Below, one piece after another: positions 2,549 to 34,540 of a DNA stretch of 64,000 nucleotides. The stretch is from Muriicola soli. GTDB taxonomy: Bacteria > Bacteroidota > Bacteroidia > Flavobacteriales > Flavobacteriaceae. The translations under genes and the position numbers were made by a program. The notes under the pieces were generated by a model. It ran no database searches. It saw nothing but the letters and a program-made list of their open reading frames with translations, and was not told the origin of the DNA. Location: NCBI RefSeq assembly GCF_004139715.1, contig NZ_CP035544.1, positions 62,001 through 126,000 on the forward strand, given 5' to 3'. How positions within the stretch are numbered: the first letter of the stretch is position 1; each line of letters begins with the position of its first letter.

Positions 2549-2639
2549 TAACGGTAGAACTGGGGGCATCATTAATTTAGTTACATCTTTTAAAATCATT
2601 TCCAAGATGGAATATTTGCCCTCCATTTTGCCCTTATAG

Positions 2640-2659
2640 CCTGCCTGCCGGCAGGCAGG
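2640..2659. repeat. Perfect 20-bp GC palindrome
   Basis: cctgcctgcc followed by its exact reverse complement. It sits inside tRNA copy A between the D-arm residues TAG and TTCAACGG. REP-like: a short, perfect, GC-rich inverted repeat in AT-rich surroundings. Confidence 0.8.
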
Positions 2660-2671
2660 TTCAACGGATAG

Positions 2672-2689
2672 CCCCGATAGCTATCGGGG
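2672..2689. repeat. Perfect 18-bp palindrome, first copy
   Basis: ccccgatag followed by ctatcgggg. Placed directly after ggatag of tRNA copy A, where the intact tRNA has aata. The same palindrome recurs at the homologous place in copy B. Confidence 0.85.
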
Positions 2690-2721
2690 GAAGTTTCCTC
2701 AGTGGACAAGAAATCAATTCG

Positions 2722-2800
2722 AAAAGTATTCATAAATTTGCCTCCCATTTTGGCCTCATAGTTCAACGGATAGCCCCGATAGCTATCGGGGGAAGTTTCC
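2722..2800 (+). pseudogene. 5' half of tRNA-Arg(CCT), copy B, with promoter box and palindrome
   Basis: Positions 2722-2773 are identical to 3090-3141 (52 nt). The copy therefore includes the last codons plus stop of the GIY-YIG gene, the TAAATTTG promoter box (2733-2740), and tRNA nucleotides 1-22 (2752-2773). The palindrome ccccgatagctatcgggg then replaces aata, and the copy ends with gaagtttcc (2792-2800) inside the anticodon loop. There is no 3' half, so it is a non-functional tRNA fragment, though the promoter copy is intact. Confidence 0.85.
2774..2791. repeat. Perfect 18-bp palindrome, second copy
   Basis: Identical to 2672-2689 and in the same register of the tRNA fragment, so it was probably duplicated together with the fragment and not inserted twice. 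Confidence 0.85.
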
Positions 2801-2818: not shown

Positions 2819-3103
2819 ATGTATTATGTATATGTTATCCAGTCAGGACTCGATGATAGCTTTTATATTGGAAAGACATCGAATTTGGAAGAAAGATTAC
2901 TTTTTCACAATACACCAGAGCTAAACAAAGGGATTACAAAAAGAAAAATCCCATGGAAATATTTTTTCATACTGGAAATTGGGGATTTAAGATTAGCTGG
3001 TAAAATTGAAAATCATATCAAGAGAATGAAAAGCAGGAAGTACATACAGGATCTAAAGAAATATCCTGAAATTACACAAAAGCTTATCAAAAAGTATTCA
3101 TAA
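2819..3103 (+). CDS. Small GIY-YIG endonuclease-domain protein
   Basis: 94 residues, a single GIY-YIG domain of the UvrC N-terminal/YhbQ type. Visible motifs are YYVYVIQS (the GIY strand), SFYIGKTSNLEERLLFH (YIG strand, then the helix with conserved Arg), and a late Glu in LAGKIENHIKRMKSRKYI (metal-binding Glu). It is predicted to be a Mg-dependent nuclease with no added DNA-binding domain. The gene lies between a truncated copy and the intact copy of tRNA-Arg(CCT). Its last codons and stop are part of a 52-bp direct repeat that runs on into the tRNA. A copy of the tRNA promoter box lies ~80 bp upstream and may drive it. AT-richness is slightly above neighbours. Family membership is firm; the biological role is not known. 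Confidence 0.9.
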   Translation: MYYVYVIQSGLDDSFYIGKTSNLEERLLFHNTPELNKGITKRKIPWKYFFILEIGDLRLAGKIENHIKRMKSRKYIQDLKKYPEITQKLIKKYS

Positions 3104-3108
3104 ATTTG
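3101..3108 (+). promoter_or_regulatory. Bacteroidota -7 box for tRNA-Arg
   Basis: TAAATTTG matches the Bacteroidota -7 consensus TAnnTTTG and lies 12 bp before the tRNA 5' end, overlapping the stop codon of the GIY-YIG gene. No clear -33 TTG is seen. Confidence 0.55.
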
Positions 3109-3119
3109 CCTCCCATTTT

Positions 3120-3191
3120 GGCCTCATAGTTCAACGGATAGAATAGAAGTTTCCTAAACTTTAGATCCAGGTTCGATTCCTGGTGAGGCTA
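3120..3191 (+). tRNA. tRNA-Arg (anticodon CCT)
   Basis: Full cloverleaf by eye: acceptor GGCCTCA/TGAGGCT (G-T at the first pair), D stem GTTC/GAAT with loop AACGGATA, anticodon stem GAAGT/ACTTT with loop TTCCTAA (anticodon CCT at 3153-3155), T stem CCAGG/CCTGG with loop TTCGATT, discriminator A at 3191. No CCA is encoded. It reads AGG codons. A strong terminator follows at 3204. Confidence 0.95.
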
Positions 3192-3203
3192 CAAATAAGC
3201 ACA

Positions 3204-3236: not shown

Positions 3237-3265
3237 GCGACCCGCCGAAAGAAACTTGTTTCGTT

Positions 3266-3600
3266 GAGTGCGGGGCCAAAAATAAAACCAACTGCGCATG
3301 CAGTTGAGCTTTTGTATTTTCACGATGAGGCTCTGTCAGGAACAGCGTCCGCAGAAGCATAGCGAAGCACGCTTCGGGGGCCAGCTAATCCTGGTAAGGA
3401 TGAGTGCGGGGCCAAAAATAAAACCAACTGCGCATGCAGTTGTGCTTTTGTATTTTCACGATGAGGCTCTGTCAGGAACAGCGTCCGCAGAAGCAGAGCG
3501 AAGCACGCTTCGGGGGCTGGCTAATCCTGGATTTCTCCTGAGGCCCGTACCAAAAATAAAACCAACTGCGCAGCAGTTGAGCTTTTGTATTTTCACCACA
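3266..3600. repeat. Three tandem ~137-bp repeats in the 587-bp gene-free stretch after the tRNA
   Basis: Units start with ccaaaaataaaacc at 3276, 3412 and 3550 (spacing 136 and 138). Each holds the hairpin caactgc-gcat-gcagttg (the third has lost at), then gcttttgtattttcac. Units 1 and 2 also share gatgaggctctgtcagg, the inverted repeat cgaagc-ac-gcttcg, and gctaatcctgg. The third unit diverges after tattttcacca. The open frames across it (for example 3298-3687) are repeat artefacts. The rest of 3192-3778 shows nothing beyond the tRNA terminator and the leader of the giant kinase. Confidence 0.8.
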
Positions 3601-3778
3601 AATATCTGTCGGGAGCACTGCACCTGTCCCCCTAAAAACCCCATCGGATTTATTCAGGGATTTATTCTAAAATCTTACTTATCTTAGACCATGAGCTCTG
3701 AGCACCAGAGTTGAAGACCATTACTTAATAGCTAATGGTGTTTGCTATGCTGCCAAACGTCCTCTATAACCACCACCA

Positions 3779-6700
3779 ATGAATCCATCTTCCCACGGCA
3801 GAAATATAACTGAGATCCACGCTGTTTACGAAAAAATGATCGAGGTACTTTTGTACTTCGGGCCTATTGAAAAGCTCGATGAGATCGTTCATCCGGATTT
3901 TCATGGATATGGTACCGCTGCACATGAATTTCTAAGTGACAAGGCAGCTTTAAAGAGAATGGCTAAAATGCAGGCCGAACAATTAAAGGGTACAGAATAT
4001 ACATTGACACGCAAAATCATTTTTGAAAAATTCCTCTCTGATGGTAAAAACTACTTGATCCTTGAGGATTTTGAACTCCATTTGCAGGACAATGATCACA
4101 ACCTGCCGCTCAGGCTTTCTACCATTCTAGAAAAAGTATCCGGCAAATGGTTAATTACCCACTTTCACGGCTCTACACCCGACAGTGATATAGCTGAGGA
4201 AGAGGCTTTGCCCATGGAAGGCCTGCGCAAGAAAAATGAGGAGTTGGAAGCAAAGATCAGGGAAAGGACACGGGAATTAGAGATTGAAGCCGCATTGGAA
4301 CGGGTACGTTCGGCATCAATGGCCATTCACAAAAGTGAGGAACTGCATAAGGTGGTATTAACTGTAGCACAGGAAATTAATAGCCTTGGGTTAAATATTG
4401 ATGCGGCACACCTATTTCGATTTGAGGAGGGAAATGATAAAGGATTTAATATGTGGATCGCAGGGGATGGTGGAGTTTACCCCAATGAAGTATACTTTCC
4501 ATATATCAAGCATGAAATATTTGATGGCATTTATAATGCCAGACAAAAAAACAAAAGCTTTTTTTCCATAGCTGGGATGAGTAAAAAAGTTAAAAATCGT
4601 GTGTACCGCCATCTTCTTAAAAGCGCAAACATTAATATTTCTGAGAGCAGGCAAAAATATGCACTAGGTACAAAATCGGGCGCTTATTCAATTGCGCTTT
4701 CAAAGAATTCAGGAATAGCCATTATTAAATTTTCAGAAGAAGGTGCAGGATTTGGCGAAGAGGAACATGAGATTTTAAGGCGATTTTCCAACGTTTTTGA
4801 ACAAGCTTATATCCGCTTTTTAGGTTTGGCTAATGCCGAAAAACAGGCCCGGGAAGCACAAATACAACTCGCACTTGAACGGGTTCGGGCCAGGTCTTTG
4901 GCCATGCAATCCAGTGATGAATTGCATGAGGTCTTGGGGGTATTATTCAGACAGTTTGATGATCTGGGCATACAGCCGGTGAATGTGTTCCTAAGTCTTT
5001 TTGATCGTGAGCAAAGAACCCTTACCTACAGGGCATCGGGTAAATCGGGGAAACGAATGCCGGGGAAGCAGGTGGTGGAAGTAGATAGCATGGAGGCACT
5101 CCGGGCCCTGTACGACAAATGGCTTACGGACAATTCCGATACCGTTGAAGTGATCTTTTTCCCCAAAGAAGTATTGTCCCAACTTTTTGGCATTTTTTCC
5201 GAAACTTTTTCCTCCATGCCTAAAGAAGATCGCATGGGACCCGAAGACTTTCCCGAAGGAGGTTATTCCATGGCGGGGTACACCCCTTTTGGTTACCTGG
5301 GCTATGACCATCAAAGGCCGGCCACGGATGAAGAAAAGGAAATCCTAATCAGATTTTGCGTTGAATTCACAAGGGTATACCAACGATTTTTAGACATACA
5401 AAAAGCGGAAGCCCAGACCCGGGAGGCACAGATTGAAATGGCTCTTGAAAGAGTCCGTTCAGCCTCCATGGCCATGCACAAAAGCAAAGATCTTCATGAT
5501 GTTTTGGTGATGTTGTACAATCAATTGGCTTCGCTGGGATTGAAGATGCACTCGGCCCAAATAATCGAATCTATTGATGACCCAAAAGAAATGCATATTT
5601 GGATAGTCACCAATGGTGTGGTTTATTCGGAACAGGTTCATGCACCATTCTCTAAAAATATATTTTTCAAACGTTTCAGGGAAGCAGTAACCAATGGGGA
5701 ATCATTTTATACACTAAAATTTTCGAAACGCCAGAAGGATAATTTATTTCATCACTTTTTTGATAATACCATACTTAGAAATGCGCCTCAGGCAAGAAAA
5801 GACCTCATCTTTTCCAGCCCTGGCCTGGGAACATCTAATGCAATGGGGAAATATACCTCCTTGTCAGTAATGCGCTATGATGGGATTCTGTACAGTGAGG
5901 AGGAAAATGAAATCATTAAACGTTTTGCTAAGGTGTTAGAGCAGAGCTATACACGTTTCCTCGATATCAAAAAAGCGGAAGCCCATGCCCGGGAAGCACA
6001 AATTGAAGCGGCCCTGGAGCGGATTCGATCAAAAGCAATGGCAATGCACAGTTCTGATGACCTTGCCGATACCGTGGAAATACTCTATAAAGAACTAGAT
6101 ACCCTCCAGGTGCATGCTTTAAGATTTGGACATGCAAAATTAAACGCGGATACCAAAATAGTTGAATTACATACGGCTACGGATTTAGGGAAAGTGGTAG
6201 GTCAAATAAAACTTGAAGGCCATCCGTTACTGGAAAAGATATATAAAAATTTTCTGGCAAAAGAAGATTTGTACTATGCCCTTCAGGGAGAGGAAATGAA
6301 AAGCTATTACTCAATCTTAGGCCGCGCCATTGACGTACCGATACCACCTATGGATACTGTACAACACGGCTACTTTTTCTTTTTAAAGGACACCGCCAAT
6401 TATGCCTGGTCTGACAAGGCATTAGATGAAGAGGAACTCAAAATTTATAGAAGATTAATTACGGTGTTGAACTTAACGTATAAACGCTACGAAGAGCTAA
6501 AGAATGCAGAAACCCAAGCCAGGGAAGCACAAATTGAAGCTGCTCTGGAAAAAGTACGGTCACAGTCTTTGGCTATGCATAACACCAGTGAAATGCAGCT
6601 GGTAGCCAATGCGGTTTTTGAGCAGCTTCAGGCCTTGGGCATGGAAATGGATGTCGTAGGCATGAGCGGGATCATTGAGGCTAAACAGGACTACGATGTC

Positions 6701-9700
6701 TGGATAGGGGGTGCCCCTTTGGGATCGGCTTTGCGAATTCCCTATAACGAGGATACTCAGGTACAGCGCGATTACAATAAGATGCTTAAAGACCGGCCGG
6801 AACTCTTCGTCAGAACCTATTCTGGCCAGGTCAAAAAGGAATACATCGACCGCCTGCTAACCCACGGGGAATTTCCGGAAGCACTTAAAAAAAAGATGAA
6901 AACTTCTGATGCTTTCACCACCATGATCGCCCCGAAAAAGAATTCCGGCATTCAGGTAGTGCATTATTCGGATCAACCTTATACTGATCAAGATGCGGAG
7001 ACACTGAAACGTTTCGCCGGAGTTTTTGAGCAAGCCTATATCCGATTTATGGATCTGGAAAAAGCAGAAGCACAAGCCAGGGAAGCAGAAATAGACCTGG
7101 CCATAGAACGTATTCGTTCTCAGGCGATGGCAATGAAGGAATCCTCTGAATTACTTGATATAGTGGTGACCATGCGCAGTGAATTTATTCGTCTCGGCCA
7201 CGAAGCACATTATTTCTGGCATATGATGTGGCTACCGGATAAATACGAAAAAGCAATGACCTCCGGGGATGGAAAACGGATTGGCATGGTCATGGAATTA
7301 CCCCGTCATCTCCATGGCGACATCAAATTATTGGCAAACTGGGAAAAGAGTAAGAAGCCTTTAGTAGTTTATCCTATGGATGCTGAGGCGGCTATTGACT
7401 ATGTGGACAAGATGATCAATCTTGGCGATTTTAAACAGGTAGATCCCAACGCCCCGAGTCATGATGATATCAGGCATATTGGAGGCCTTACCTTTATCAT
7501 GGCAAGAACAACCCACGGAGAGATCGGTTACAGTTTACCGGGTGTGGTAGAACAGCCCCCTGAAGAAGATTTATTTATCCTTCAACGATTTGCAGGGGCT
7601 TTCGATCTTGCCCACCGCCGTTTCCTCGACCTGAAAAAATCAGAAGCCCAGGCACGTGAGGTTGAAATAGAACTGGCATTGGAAAGAGTCAGGGCCAGAA
7701 CTATGGCCATGCAACACAGTGATGAGTTGCAGGAAGCTTCCTTTTTATTAGATGAACAGGTACGGAAACTGGGTATACAAACCTGGGGTTGCGCCTTTAA
7801 TATTTACAGGGAAAAAGACTCCATTGAATGGTTTGGAAATGAAAAAGGTATTCTACCAACTTATACTGTTCCAAGAAAAGGAATTTTTAAAAAGTACTAT
7901 GATCTGGGACAAAAGGGTTCCCAACTGCACATTCAGGAATTCAAAGGAGCCAAGTGTATAGCACATTATGAATACATGAGTACCCTGCCTGTAATAGGGG
8001 ATGTTCTCAAGCAACTAAAAAAAACAAATGGCGCTTATCCCGAATATCAAATAGATCATGTGGTGTACTTTAAGTATGGGTATCTATTATTTATAACCAC
8101 TGAACAAGTGCCGGACTCGCATGATATTTTTAAACGCTTTGCCCAGGTATTTGAACAGACCTATACCCGTTTCCTCGATCTTCAAAAAGCAGAGGCCCAG
8201 GCAAGGGAGGCAAAAATTGAGACCGCACTGGAAAAAGTGCGTTCCTGCTCATTGGCCATGCATTCCACAACGGAAATGCAGGAGGTAGCCAACGAGGTTT
8301 ACGAACAACTCCAGAATCTAGGGCTGGAGTTGGATGCCGTGGGGATGAGCGGGGTCATTGAAGCAAAAAACGATTATGATGTGTGGATAGGAGGCTCCAC
8401 TTTTGGACAAGCCCTGCGGATTCCATTTAATGAAGACACGGAGGTACAGCGTGATTACAACAAAGCCATTGCGGAGCGAGTAAAGTTGTTTGCCAGGACC
8501 TATTCGGGAAAGGAGAAGGAGGAATATACTAAGCACTTACTCAAGCATGGAGAGTTCCCCGGCCCACTTAAAAAAAAGATGAAAACTGCGCCGGCTTTTT
8601 CAACCTCGATATCGTTTTCAAAATACTCCAGTATTCAGATTGCTCGTTATACAGACGAGCCTTATTCAAAAGAAGAGAATGAGATCCTACAGCGCTTTTC
8701 AAGAGTTTTTGAGCAGGCTTACATCCGTTTTATGGATCTCGAAAAAGCAGAAGCACAAGCCAGGGAAGCCCAAATTGAAGCTGCTCTCGAAAAAGTGCGA
8801 TCCAGGACCATGGCGATGCAGCGAAGTGAAGAATTGCCGGAAGCCGCCAATACCCTTTTTCTGCAAATACAGTCTTTAGGAATTCCGGCTTGGAGTGCGG
8901 GGTATTGTATTTGGGAGTCCGAGGATAAAAAATTCGCTTCCTGTAATATGAGTAGCGAAGGGGAACTCCAAAAATCATTTAGTCTGCCAACTATAGGAGA
9001 AGGCTATAATTTTTATGACCCTATAAAAAAGGGCGACACGTTTTATGTGGAGGAGTTAGGAGGTGAAAAACTGGTAAAGCATTATGAGTTTATGCGCACG
9101 CTCCCTACCGTTGGAGAAATATTGGATGAATTGCTAAATGCAGGTTTATCACTACCGACATTTCAAATATTTCATATCCTCTATTTCCCACAGGGTTACC
9201 TGATGTTCATCACCTATGAACCTGTACCTAAAGCACATCCTATTTTTAAACGATTTGCCAAGGTTTTTGAGCAAACGTATACCCGTTTTCTCGATCTGCA
9301 AAAAGCAGAAGCACAAGCAAGGGAAGCACAAATTGAAGCGGCTCTGGAAAGAATCCGTGCCAAATCTATGGCTATGCATTCATCAGATGAATTGAGTGAT
9401 GTACTGGAAGTGCTTTTTGAGCAGTTTGTGATTTTGGAAATAAACCCGGTATTCGCTGTTTTAAATCTGTATGATTTAGAAAACGACACATTTACCATGC
9501 GGGTAACCGGTAAAAACGGCGCAAAAGTCATCGGAACACAAACGGTAAAGTTTAGTGAAAATGAAATCTGGAAGGATTACGGAGAAAAATTCAGACAGGG
9601 TACTCCTGATATGATTAGCGATCAATTCTATCCTGCTGAAATTTTACCAGATGTTTGGGAAATTTTAAAAGATCTTGTACATGCAGTTCCTGAAAAGGTA

Positions 9701-12700
9701 AGGCCTTTACCATCAGATTTTCCAGATGGCCTGTACAATATTGAAGGGTATTGCACTTACGGAACCATAGGTTGTAATCTCAACCGTCCGCCAACAGAAG
9801 AAGAGAAAAATATTGTAATAAAATTTGCTACCGAATTCGGGAGGCTCTACCAGCGCTTTTTGGATATTCAAAAAGCAGAAGCACAGGCCAGGGAATCTCA
9901 GATAGAGGCAGCATTGGAAAGAGTACGCAGTAGAAGTATGGCCATGCATAAAAGTAGCGAAATGCTAGATTTAATTAAAGTTGTCTCTGACCAATTGAGA
10001 GGACTTAATTTAAATTTTGACTCAGTTAGTTTTGCAAAAAATGATGTGGAGGGGGCTTTTACTTTTTGGCTAAGCTCAAAGGGGCAACCCCAACCTATAT
10101 TGATGGAAGTGCCACCTATTGACAGTCGGGTAATGAATAGCGTTTACAGCGCTAAGAAAAATGGACTTAGATTTATTACAGATGTATTTTCAGCCGCAGA
10201 AAACAAAGAATGGAGTAAACATCTCATTAGATATACCCAACTAAAGCAATATCCGGAAACCATAAAAGAATTTATTTTGACGGCATCGGGTTTTGCCCGT
10301 TCTAGCTTTTTCTTGAAGAATATTGACCTGTATGTTGTTAACTACAAGGCGATCCCTTTTACTGAGGCAGAAAATTCGATTTTCGGAAGGTTTGCACAGG
10401 TGTTTGAACAGGCCTACACCCGCTTCTTAGACCTGCAAAAAGCAGAATTTCAGGCGAGGGAAGCTCAGATTGAAGCGGCACTGGAACGGGTTCGTTCCAA
10501 AACCATGGCCATGCATAACAGTCAGGACGTAGGAGCAACCGTTGTCACCTTATTTGATGAGGTCAAGAATTTAAATCTGGAAGATTCCATACGTTGTGGA
10601 ATAGGCATCCTGGAAGGAAATGAAAAAATGGAAACCTGGTCTGCCAATGCTACGCCTGGAGGAAAGGTAGAGTTAAAATTGGGGATGCTCGATATGACGA
10701 TACACCCTATGCTGGTGGGAGTAAAAAATTCGTGGAAAAGGGGTAAGAAAGGATATACATATGAATTAAAGGATGGGGATGTCAGGAATTATTACAGCAA
10801 GCTCAATGCGGAACCTGAATATTCCTTCACCGTGGATCTGGATACCTTACCTGATAAGATTTACCACAAGAGTTTTGTTTTTTCTGCCGGAATTCTTTTT
10901 GCCTTTACAGAGAATGCAATATCCGAGGAGGGATCAAAGGTGTTGGAACGGTTTGCCGGGGTTTTTGGACAAACCTACAGACGCTACCTGGATCTGCTGA
11001 ACGCTGAAAAACAAGCTCGTGAAGCACAGATAGAAGCTTCTTTGGAACGTATTCGTGCCAGAGCTATGGCCATGCACCATACCGACGAATTGACCGATGT
11101 ACTCGGAGTGCTTTTTGACCAATTTGATTCCCTGGGGATCAATCCTGTACTCACTCACCTGACGCTCTTCGACGAAGAAAACGAAACCTTTACGCTGCGT
11201 ATTACGACAGGGGGGAAGAAACGGGTCATTGCCGAACAGTTGATCGACGTAAATGCAGTGGAAAGCTGGAAAACTTCCTTTGCCAACTGGAAGAAAAGTG
11301 AGATGCATGCCATAGACTTTATCGAATACCCCCCGGAAGTACTTCCCGCAGTATGGGAATTACTCGATGAGGTTATGTCTGCCCTACCCGAGGAGAATAA
11401 AATTTACCCGGAGGATTTTCCCGATGGCTTGTATACCACCCAGGGACATTGTAAGTACGGATATATTGGTTTTAACCACAACAGAAGGGCAACCGAGGAG
11501 GAAAAAGATATTGTGATCCGCTTTGCCAAGGAATTCGGCCGACTCTACCAGCGTTTTCTCGATATCCAAAAAGCTGAATTACAAGCCAGAGACGCGCTAA
11601 AGCAAGCTACGCTAGACAGGGTACGCGGACAGATTGCCAGTATGCGTTCTGCTTCAGACCTGGAACGTATCACCCCCCTGATTTGGAATGAACTCACCTT
11701 CCTGGAGATTCCATTTATTCGATGCGGGGTTTTTATCATAAATGAATCGAACAAAACAGTGCAGGCATTTTTATCGGCACCGGATGGACATTCCCTCGGC
11801 GCTATGCAGATTCCATTTAAAGCCGATAAGGTTACAGCTGCAATTGTAGCGCACTGGAAAAAGGGTGAGGTATTCAGAACACACTGGGATAAGAAACAGT
11901 TTCTTGAATTTATGCAGTTGATGGTAGACCTGGGACAGGTGAGTAATAAGAACGAGTATCAGGGAGCCGAACAACCCCCGGAGTCGCTCCACCTTCATTT
12001 TGTACCCTTCACCCAGGGCATGTTGTATGTAGGAAATACAGAATCTTTAGAGGAGGAACAGATCGAATTGGTAAAAACCCTTGCTGATGCCTTTGCCATT
12101 GCCTATGCGCGGTATGAGGATTTTGTCAAATTGGAGAAAGCTAAAGAACGGGTAGAGAACACACTGGAAGAGCTCAAGGCCACGCAGAATCAGCTGGTCC
12201 AATCGGAAAAAATGGCCTCATTGGGTGAGCTTACGGCCGGGATTGCCCATGAGATCCAGAATCCGCTCAATTTCGTCAACAACTTTTCGGAAGTGAGTGT
12301 TGAACTCTTAGAGGAAATGCAGGAGGAGATGGATAAAGGTGACCTGGAGGAGGTGAAAGCCCTGCTGGATGATATCAAACAAAATCTGGACAAGATTGCA
12401 CATCACGGCAAAAGGGCAGACGGCATTGTTAAAGGGATGTTGCAACACAGCAGAGCCAGCAGCGGGGAAAAAGAACTTACAGACATAAATATCCTGGCCG
12501 ACGAATATCTGCGCCTGGCCTATCATGGCCTGAGGGCCAAAGACAAGAGTTTTAATGCTACTTTGGAAACCGACTTTGACGAGTCCATAGGGAAGGTAAA
12601 CGTACTTGCCCAGGATCTGGGCCGGGTTATTTTAAACCTTATTACCAATGCGTTTTATGTGGTAAAAGAAAAGTCATCCCACGCTAAAGCTTCGGAGGAT

Positions 12701-12910
12701 TCTAACTATATGCCTACAGTAACCGTAAGTACAAAGAAATCTAAGGCAGGAGTAGAAATAAGGGTAAAGGATAATGGCAATGGAATTCCCGATGAGATCA
12801 AAGAAAAGATCTTTGAACCTTTCTTCACTACCAAACCTACCGGGCAGGGTACAGGACTGGGATTAAGCATGAGCTACGATATCGTTACAAAAGGGCATGG
12901 GGGGAATTAA
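3779..12910 (+). CDS. Giant soluble sensor histidine kinase with SnoaL-like domain and 14 repeated sensor modules
   Basis: 3043 residues, no signal peptide or membrane segment, so cytoplasmic. Order: SnoaL-like (NTF2 fold) domain ~5-135; coiled coil; then 14 modules of ~185-195 residues. Each module opens with a helical linker of the type [20 protein letters not shown], starting near residues 168, 365, 555, 745, 921, 1107, 1299, 1483, 1669, 1855, 2044, 2234, 2420 and 2609, and closes with RFxxVFEQxYxRFLDLxKAE. The folds between look GAF-like, but I cannot name the family. Then come a coiled coil, a HisKA domain with phospho-acceptor His2824 ([12 protein letters not shown]), and HATPase boxes [10 protein letters not shown] and GTGLGLSMS. 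The frame stops right after the last box at a G6 run (12899-12904). One more G would restore [20 protein letters not shown] and a stop at 12979-12981, 3 bp before the next gene. Receivers for it are probably encoded downstream. Confidence 0.85.
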
Positions 12911-34503: not shown

Positions 34504-34540
34504 AATAGCCTTATGACCATGGTCATAAGGCTATTCTCTT
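34504..34540. terminator. Bidirectional terminator, 15-bp perfect stem
   Basis: Stem aatagccttatgacc/ggtcataaggctatt around the centre at, followed by ctcttttt on the plus strand, with A-rich sequence upstream that gives a T-rich tail on the minus strand. The stop codon of the minus-strand gene at 34531 lies inside the stem. Confidence 0.85.

What the first reader, a model, noticed from the sequence alone, without database searches (positions are those of the whole stretch)
2640..2791. Perfect palindromes set inside the D-arm of the tRNA fragments
A 20-bp GC palindrome and two copies of an 18-bp palindrome (ccccgatag-ctatcgggg) sit only in the truncated tRNA copies, at the D-arm; the intact tRNA is free of them. 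They may be REP-like mobile palindromes that inactivated the copies, or marks that shield the copies from a nuclease that targets the tRNA gene.
Basis: partly seen in the sequence, partly recalled or inferred. Interest (0 to 1): 0.55.

Follow-up and report, generated by a model that had tools for sequence, protein, structure and literature searches.

The report
Nuclease cassette that splits tRNA genes
The palindromes are a recurring tag of a small nuclease gene that has settled in tRNA genes of many Bacteroidota, leaving one working tRNA and one discarded, hairpin-marked piece beside it.

Summary
Relatives of the nuclease (two branches) occur in 73 of 149 family genomes; 62 of 122 loci have a tRNA within 1.2 kb, in all 62 on the nuclease's strand. 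At 53 of these 62 the displaced tRNA piece carries a hairpin; at the other nine I recognised no displaced piece. In a second, phylum-wide set, 74 of 80 loci carry the CCGATAGCTATCGG palindrome within 200 bp of the nuclease. Nuclease lineages tend to keep to one tRNA, and the palindrome type follows the nuclease lineage rather than the tRNA. The stem is kept by compensatory changes while the central four bases drift, so it behaves as a hairpin. No REP transposase was found in this genome, and the live tRNA is unaltered, which weakens plain REP and simple shielding. Best reading: a homing-type, SegB-like nuclease cassette with its own hairpin in the discarded tRNA piece. Cleavage and the hairpin's role are inferred. 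I found no description in print.

The parts
2630..2699 (+). Displaced 5' half of tRNA-Arg(CCU), leftmost copy (positions 1-22 and 27-36), with two palindromes
   Evidence: the same arrangement with both palindromes in G149/L182
2640..2659 (.). 20-bp perfect palindrome, type b, between acceptor strand and D-arm
   Evidence: one place in the genome within 2 mismatches
2672..2689 (.). 18-bp perfect palindrome, type a, replacing tRNA positions 23-26
2752..2800 (+). Displaced 5' half of tRNA-Arg(CCU), second copy (positions 1-22 and 27-35)
2774..2791 (.). 18-bp perfect palindrome, type a, replacing tRNA positions 23-26
2723..2751 (+). Duplicated tRNA leader, identical to 3091-3119; contains TAAATTTG, which fits the Bacteroidota -7 box as I recall it
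2819..3103 (+). GIY-YIG nuclease gene, 94 aa; its stop codon TAA is the start of the TAAATTTG in the next tRNA leader
   Evidence: Pfam PF01541 E 4.5e-11; Y5, Y16, G18, R26, E64 invariant and H30 nearly so in an alignment of 10
3091..3119 (+). Leader of the intact tRNA, second copy of the duplicated leader
3120..3192 (+). Intact tRNA-Arg(CCU)
   Evidence: ARAGORN; Rfam RF00005 65.3 bits

Best explanation
The palindromes belong to a nuclease cassette that parasitises tRNA genes. SHOWN: the unit is [displaced tRNA half with hairpin]-[GIY-YIG gene]-[intact tRNA], or the mirror order with a displaced 3' half downstream of the nuclease; it occurs alone or as tandem arrays; gene and tRNA lie on one strand; nuclease lineages tend to keep to one tRNA; the hairpin type goes with the nuclease lineage. 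INFERRED: the nuclease breaks the tRNA gene, and repair or recombination leaves the cassette between two copies of the broken part (the shared stretch runs from under 30 to at least about 90 bp), so that one complete tRNA is regenerated and the other piece is stranded. The hairpin, often replacing 3-5 bases of the stranded piece, sometimes none and sometimes a whole arm, is the cassette's own cognate structure: it ruins the stranded piece as a tRNA, as a cleavage target and as a recombination partner, and is probably recognised by the nuclease as a folded single strand. The nuclease's closest relatives of known structure are UPF0213 proteins and the structure-specific nuclease SLX1.
For: Same-strand tRNA at 62 of 62 tRNA-adjacent loci (of 122 GIY loci) and at 67 of 68 (of 80) in a second set. 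Core CCGATAGCTATCGG (up to 2 mismatches) within 200 bp of the nuclease at 74 of 80 loci; 3.0 sites per kb near against 0.16 beyond 400 bp; 30 shuffled-arm palindromes (29 distinct) hit 0 of 80. tRNA labels need 18 changes on the nuclease tree against 38-47 in 200 shuffles (57 labelled, 13 states). Palindrome type a:b is 60:2 loci in one nuclease clade and 1:14 in the other. Compensatory double changes 42 against 1 non-compensatory; 30 of 53 single changes fall in the central four bases. Tandem arrays with period 391, and 349 and 337 by the spacing of hits. Conserved catalytic positions; UPF0213 and SLX1 as nearest solved relatives. The same locus in the same genus shows two complete units (G149), copies without the gene (G150, G156) and, in G156, diverged but still paired hairpins.
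Against: No cleavage or mobility was observed. The live tRNA keeps the bases of the presumed target, so a nuclease cutting tRNA genes should cut its own carrier. The hairpins are not confined to tRNA loops (13 of 46 against 10.3 expected, p 0.20). Solo palindromes elsewhere in the genome do not go only with the matching clade: type a goes as much with the other clade, type b leans to its own. At 9 of the 62 tRNA-adjacent loci no displaced piece was recognised. The type classes were set after seeing the data, some inserts fit neither class (3 MKS, 4 GR loci), and loci are not phylogenetically independent.
Confidence: 0.58

Rival explanations
1. Shield: the nuclease recognises the tRNA half itself, and the palindrome only destroys the target in the stranded copy; its sequence is incidental.
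For: The hairpin sits in the stranded piece, 5' or 3' of the nuclease as the case may be. SegB of phage T6 cuts inside tRNA genes (PMC13096335, section 9 read). Free-standing GIY-YIG enzymes are said to cut the donor allele poorly (same paper, Discussion read).
Against: The live copy is unprotected. Any insertion would do, yet sequence and pairing are kept across the phylum.
Confidence: 0.2
2. RNA-level disarming: in a read-through transcript the stranded piece could pair with the live one; the hairpin prevents a false tRNA.
For: Stranded 5' halves keep leader and promoter-like sequence. Anticodon or T-arms are replaced by hairpins in several loci.
Against: Point changes would serve as well, yet one sequence is kept across the phylum. 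In the 3' type the stranded half lies behind what looks like the tRNA's own terminator and still carries the hairpin.
Confidence: 0.12
3. Generic REP-like mobile palindromes that drifted into unselected tRNA debris.
For: The same core also lies in a cassette array with attC-like repeats, in hairpin loops that look like terminators and between genes. Palindromes can nest, as in L263.
Against: No REP transposase found; 19-fold higher density beside the nuclease than further out; type follows nuclease lineage; solo copies are commoner in genomes with the nuclease family, 34 of 73 against 8 of 76; a hairpin in every displaced piece recognised among the 62 loci.
Confidence: 0.1

Closest known systems
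SegB and other free-standing GIY-YIG homing endonucleases of T-even phages
   Same: GIY-YIG nuclease beside tRNA genes; drives tandem amplification of a tRNA plus nuclease unit (PMC13096335: abstract, passages and sections 7, 9, 10 and Discussion read; PMC2988022: passages read)
   Different: Here in bacterial genome assemblies; no relative confirmed among 600 pattern matches in the viral collection; lineages that tend to keep to one tRNA, whereas SegB showed no isotype preference; a lineage-specific hairpin in a stranded tRNA piece, while 'palindrom' has 0 occurrences in the SegB paper
REP/RAYT (TnpA-REP) systems
   Same: An enzyme with co-evolved cognate palindromes, one group of them perfect (PMC8266576, abstract and outline read)
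   Different: Enzyme is GIY-YIG, not HUH/Y1; no Y1 gene found in this genome; few copies; palindromes tied to tRNA pieces
UPF0213 / SLX1 GIY-YIG proteins
   Same: Closest solved sequences: 1zg2 E 2.8e-7, SLX1 7cq2 E 2.4e-4
   Different: The solved entries are named hypothetical protein or structure-specific endonuclease subunit; a tie to tRNA genes for them was not looked for
tRNA-integrating elements with tyrosine recombinases
   Same: Split a tRNA gene and regenerate it (recalled)
   Different: No integrase at the locus (four in the genome, none near 62-66 kb)

Membership tests
Free-standing GIY-YIG homing endonuclease | GIY-YIG catalytic domain with conserved Tyr, Gly, Arg and Glu | tested here: met
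Free-standing GIY-YIG homing endonuclease | Intergenic gene beside its target, not inside an intron or intein | tested here: met
   at the locus Rfam finds only the tRNA above a gathering score
Free-standing GIY-YIG homing endonuclease | Separate DNA-binding module behind the catalytic domain | tested here: inconclusive
   Domain covers residues 1-74 of 94 and no second domain is found; a short conserved tail remains
Free-standing GIY-YIG homing endonuclease | Cuts alleles lacking the gene and is copied into them | not testable with these tools
   needs enzyme assay or crosses
REP/RAYT | Y1/HUH transposase in the genome | tested here: not met
   PF01797: 0 matches in the own genome; the control rings in 5 of 14 genomes
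REP/RAYT | Usually more than 100 palindromes per genome (PMC2817692, start of abstract in the listing) | tested here: not met
   10 exact and 18 within 2 mismatches
REP/RAYT | Palindrome sequence co-varies with its enzyme | tested here: met
   at nuclease loci; for solo copies only partly
tRNA-targeted integrative element | Tyrosine integrase at the element's end | tested here: not met
   ORFs of the locus

The most novel reading that the evidence does not exclude
A new kind of genetic parasite: a minimal (about 400 bp per unit or less in the arrays measured) nuclease-plus-hairpin pair that splits an essential tRNA gene, rebuilds a working copy from a duplication, writes its own hairpin into the discarded piece, and has radiated over the Bacteroidota by specialising on different tRNAs. 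The same nucleases may also scatter solo hairpins into attC-like sites, terminators and other DNA hairpins: a REP-like system built on a GIY-YIG enzyme.
Probability: 0.4. Interest if true: 0.85.

Novelty: new variant of a known kind. Interest (0 to 1): 0.72.

Why it matters
It ties together short palindromes, orphan tRNA halves and tandem GIY-YIG genes in Bacteroidota, and makes a testable claim about how a selfish nuclease can live inside an essential gene without killing its host. It also offers natural nuclease-hairpin pairs for study, and it bears on annotation: tRNA fragments and small GIY-YIG proteins in these genomes are parts of one element.

Tried and rejected
Plain REP with a RAYT: no Y1 transposase found. 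Group I intron or other known RNA: at the locus Rfam shows only the tRNA above its gathering score. Integrase-borne element: none at the locus. Defence system: no PADLOC match. Viral carriers: none confirmed in viral contigs. Rule 'palindromes sit only in tRNA loops': not supported. Rule 'solo palindromes match only the resident nuclease clade': not supported. Supposed exceptions: I had counted L093, L115 and L146 as displaced pieces without a hairpin; reading the right side of the gene shows a hairpin in place of the T-arm in each. My first reading of the 15 bases 2721-2735 as a remnant of a nuclease gene was dropped: in G149 the same bases precede the leftmost copy, with no nuclease before it, so they are native leader; that the window's first unit lost its gene rests on comparison with G149 alone. 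NCBIfam gave nothing useful. Paper searches found no description of this arrangement; only open-licence papers are held.

Full report
WHAT IS THERE. The window holds an intact tRNA-Arg(CCU) at 3120-3192. Upstream lie two copies of its 5' half, at 2630-2699 and 2752-2800, ending in or just behind the anticodon (positions 1-22 and 27-36, and 1-22 and 27-35). The left copy carries a 20-bp palindrome (2640-2659) between acceptor strand and D-arm, and both copies carry an 18-bp palindrome (2672-2689, 2774-2791) in place of positions 23-26. All three are perfect, and they account for three of the four places where a perfect 18-bp palindrome starts in the window. Between the second half and the intact tRNA is a 94-residue GIY-YIG gene, 2819-3103 (Pfam E 4.5e-11), on the same strand. 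The 29 bases before the second half equal the 29 before the intact tRNA, and the nuclease's stop codon opens the TAAATTTG of that leader (the promoter reading is recalled, not tested).

THE SAME GENOME. CCCGATAGCTATCGGG has 10 exact copies and 18 places within two mismatches. Five of the 18 are in tRNA halves: two here, and one each at tRNA-Leu(UAG), tRNA-Leu(UAA) and tRNA-Gly(GCC) (L006, L007, L014); the only stand-alone GIY-YIG gene in the PF01541 search of this genome is the window's, the other three matches lying in frames of 383-601 codons. Nine lie between 1.152 and 1.190 Mb, in or beside a cassette array, and four at 2.806-2.814 Mb. The 20-mer occurs once. No Y1/RAYT transposase was found.

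THE SAME LOCUS IN THE SAME GENUS. G149 has two complete nuclease units; its left half bears both palindromes (the first with one mismatch) and its second half only the 18-mer, the window's pattern. G150 and G156 have displaced halves without the gene; G154 shows a decayed end of the gene at a contig edge. In G156 both palindromes have changed sequence but still pair. G149's nuclease DNA equals that of Muriicola jejuensis (L202), so the window's genus is probably Muriicola.

THE FAMILY. Relatives of the nuclease occur in 73 of 149 family genomes. I fetched the listed loci except two partial hits, G018:C4:178629 and G138:C18:48671; one search's list itself was capped. That gave 126 loci, 125 with a nuclease frame, 122 after removing duplicates (L062 still overlaps L082). 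Of these, 62 have a tRNA within 1.2 kb, and in all 62 it is on the nuclease's strand. There are two arrangements: displaced 5' half, nuclease, intact tRNA (as here); or intact tRNA, nuclease, displaced 3' half. Tandem arrays occur, with five units of 391 bp at a tRNA-Met in G123. At the other nine (L108, L128, L133, L134, L140, L144, L150, L164, L165) I recognised no displaced piece beyond short matches. A cruder measure, the longest perfect hairpin arm of 88 fragments at 45 loci, averages 7.0 against 4.6 in the intact tRNAs and 4.7 in random segments; many single fragments do not stand out from random segments by it. Of 59 unlabelled rows in the tree, 49 fall in another branch. Six such loci that I read lie between direct copies of long repeats, most of them hairpin-like. 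Rfam on 40 of the 60 loci without a tRNA found one tRNA and one riboswitch.

A SECOND SET. 68 of 80 have a tRNA within about 600 bp, 67 on the same strand; 51 show an insert by script, 49 of them a stable hairpin. A plain count of the core CCGATAGCTATCGG (up to two mismatches) within 200 bp of the nuclease gives 74 of 80; density 3.0 per kb near against 0.16 per kb beyond 400 bp, and none of 30 shuffled-arm palindromes (29 distinct) hits any of the 80 loci. The six misses are L210, L247, L265, L266, L268 and L275. L225 and L245 repeat loci of the first set in their nuclease DNA, and L202 repeats L182.

NUCLEASE, tRNA AND PALINDROME. On a tree of 116 nucleases the tRNA label needs 18 changes for 57 labelled rows and 13 states, against 38-47 in 200 shuffles; the tree has few columns and many weak forks. 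Palindromes fall into type a (CCGA..TCGG), type b (CCTGCC..GGCAGG and kin) and neither. In the clade with an MKS motif, type a is found at 60 loci over nine tRNA isoacceptors, type b at 2, neither at 3; in the GR clade type a at 1, type b at 14, neither at 4; in the rest 8, 3 and 5 (Fisher on 60:2 and 1:14, 2e-12). tRNA-Asn, Met and Arg(ACG) occur with both clades: type a with MKS at 28, 9 and 1 loci, type b with GR at 1 (L147, doubtful), 1 and 3. Caveats: classes were drawn after seeing the data, 20 inserts were read by eye, and loci share ancestry. Solo palindromes elsewhere are commoner in genomes with the nuclease family (type a 34 of 73 against 8 of 76; type b 20 of 73 against 5 of 76), but type a goes as much with the GR as with the MKS clade, while type b leans to GR (copies near a nuclease were subtracted only as far as the fetched loci show them).

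HAIRPIN RATHER THAN DUPLEX SITE. Among 96 sites near nucleases in the second set (85 after one per locus and sequence), pairs show 42 compensatory double changes, 1 non-compensatory double change and 53 single changes, 30 of the latter in the two central pairs, which would be the loop of a folded strand. The stem is kept and the loop drifts. Sites were chosen by likeness to the core, and cells share ancestry. An attempt to show that inserts respect tRNA loops failed (13 of 46 against 10.3 expected).

MECHANISM. The nuclease's closest solved relatives are UPF0213 proteins and SLX1, a structure-specific nuclease; I-TevI and UvrC score lower. SegB, a GIY-YIG homing endonuclease of T-even phages, cuts in tRNA genes and drives tandem amplification of a tRNA-segB unit (PMC13096335). 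I infer a similar life here: break in the tRNA gene, repair leaving a duplication, one live tRNA and one stranded piece. The hairpin's tie to the nuclease lineage and its kept pairing make it most likely a cognate structure of the cassette. Its place in the stranded piece, on either side of the gene, suggests it also makes that piece useless as tRNA, target or partner. Against a pure shield stands the unaltered live tRNA: its first half reads the same in carriers and in ten loci of other genera, apart from L194 (L190 gave no reading there); nine of these ten have a single copy of the D-arm motif, L186 has two, and none has the core palindrome. None of these steps was observed directly.

VERDICT. 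A real, phylum-wide and, in the papers I could search, undescribed arrangement. I file it as a new variant of free-standing GIY-YIG homing endonuclease elements that works in part like REP/RAYT but is not a member of it.

Noticed in passing
G000:C1 about 1,149,789-1,190,000 (L303, L304): A tyrosine recombinase match in a frame of 400 codons is followed by attC-like repeats, roughly 900 bp apart, between small paralogous genes (L303 only): probably a chromosomal integron-type cassette array. Nine of the genome's 18 palindrome places lie in this region, some apparently within the attC-like repeats.
   Followed up: partly
L079, L076, L097, L114, L074 and, with another repeat, L111: A second branch of GIY-YIG genes lies between direct copies of long hairpin repeats (TTCTCGATAC ... 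GTATCGAGAA with CACTCGAACTGACG ... CGTCACTTCGAGTG or variants of them in the first five), which looks like a REP/MITE-type partnership.
   Followed up: partly
L127: Displaced tRNA-Ser(UGA) piece holds a head-to-tail run of hairpins of the form CGTGAGCTCCGCAACG instead of a single palindrome.
   Followed up: no
L048 about 1444-1516: In an array of 11 tRNA genes, the gene called tRNA-Pro by ARAGORN overlaps a CCCGATAGCTATCGGG palindrome in its 5' part.
   Followed up: no
window 3265-3617: Two copies of a 130-nt repeat and a partial third directly behind the intact tRNA; similar repeats follow the tRNA in same-genus relatives.
   Followed up: no
window 3779-12910: Open frame of 3043 codons with many similar modules in a row; not analysed.
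   Followed up: no
window 34511-34528: The only other perfect 18-bp palindrome in the window.
   Followed up: no
L263: A palindrome nested in a palindrome in a displaced tRNA-Asn piece: TCCCGACCCCGATAGCTATCGGGGTCGGGA.
   Followed up: no
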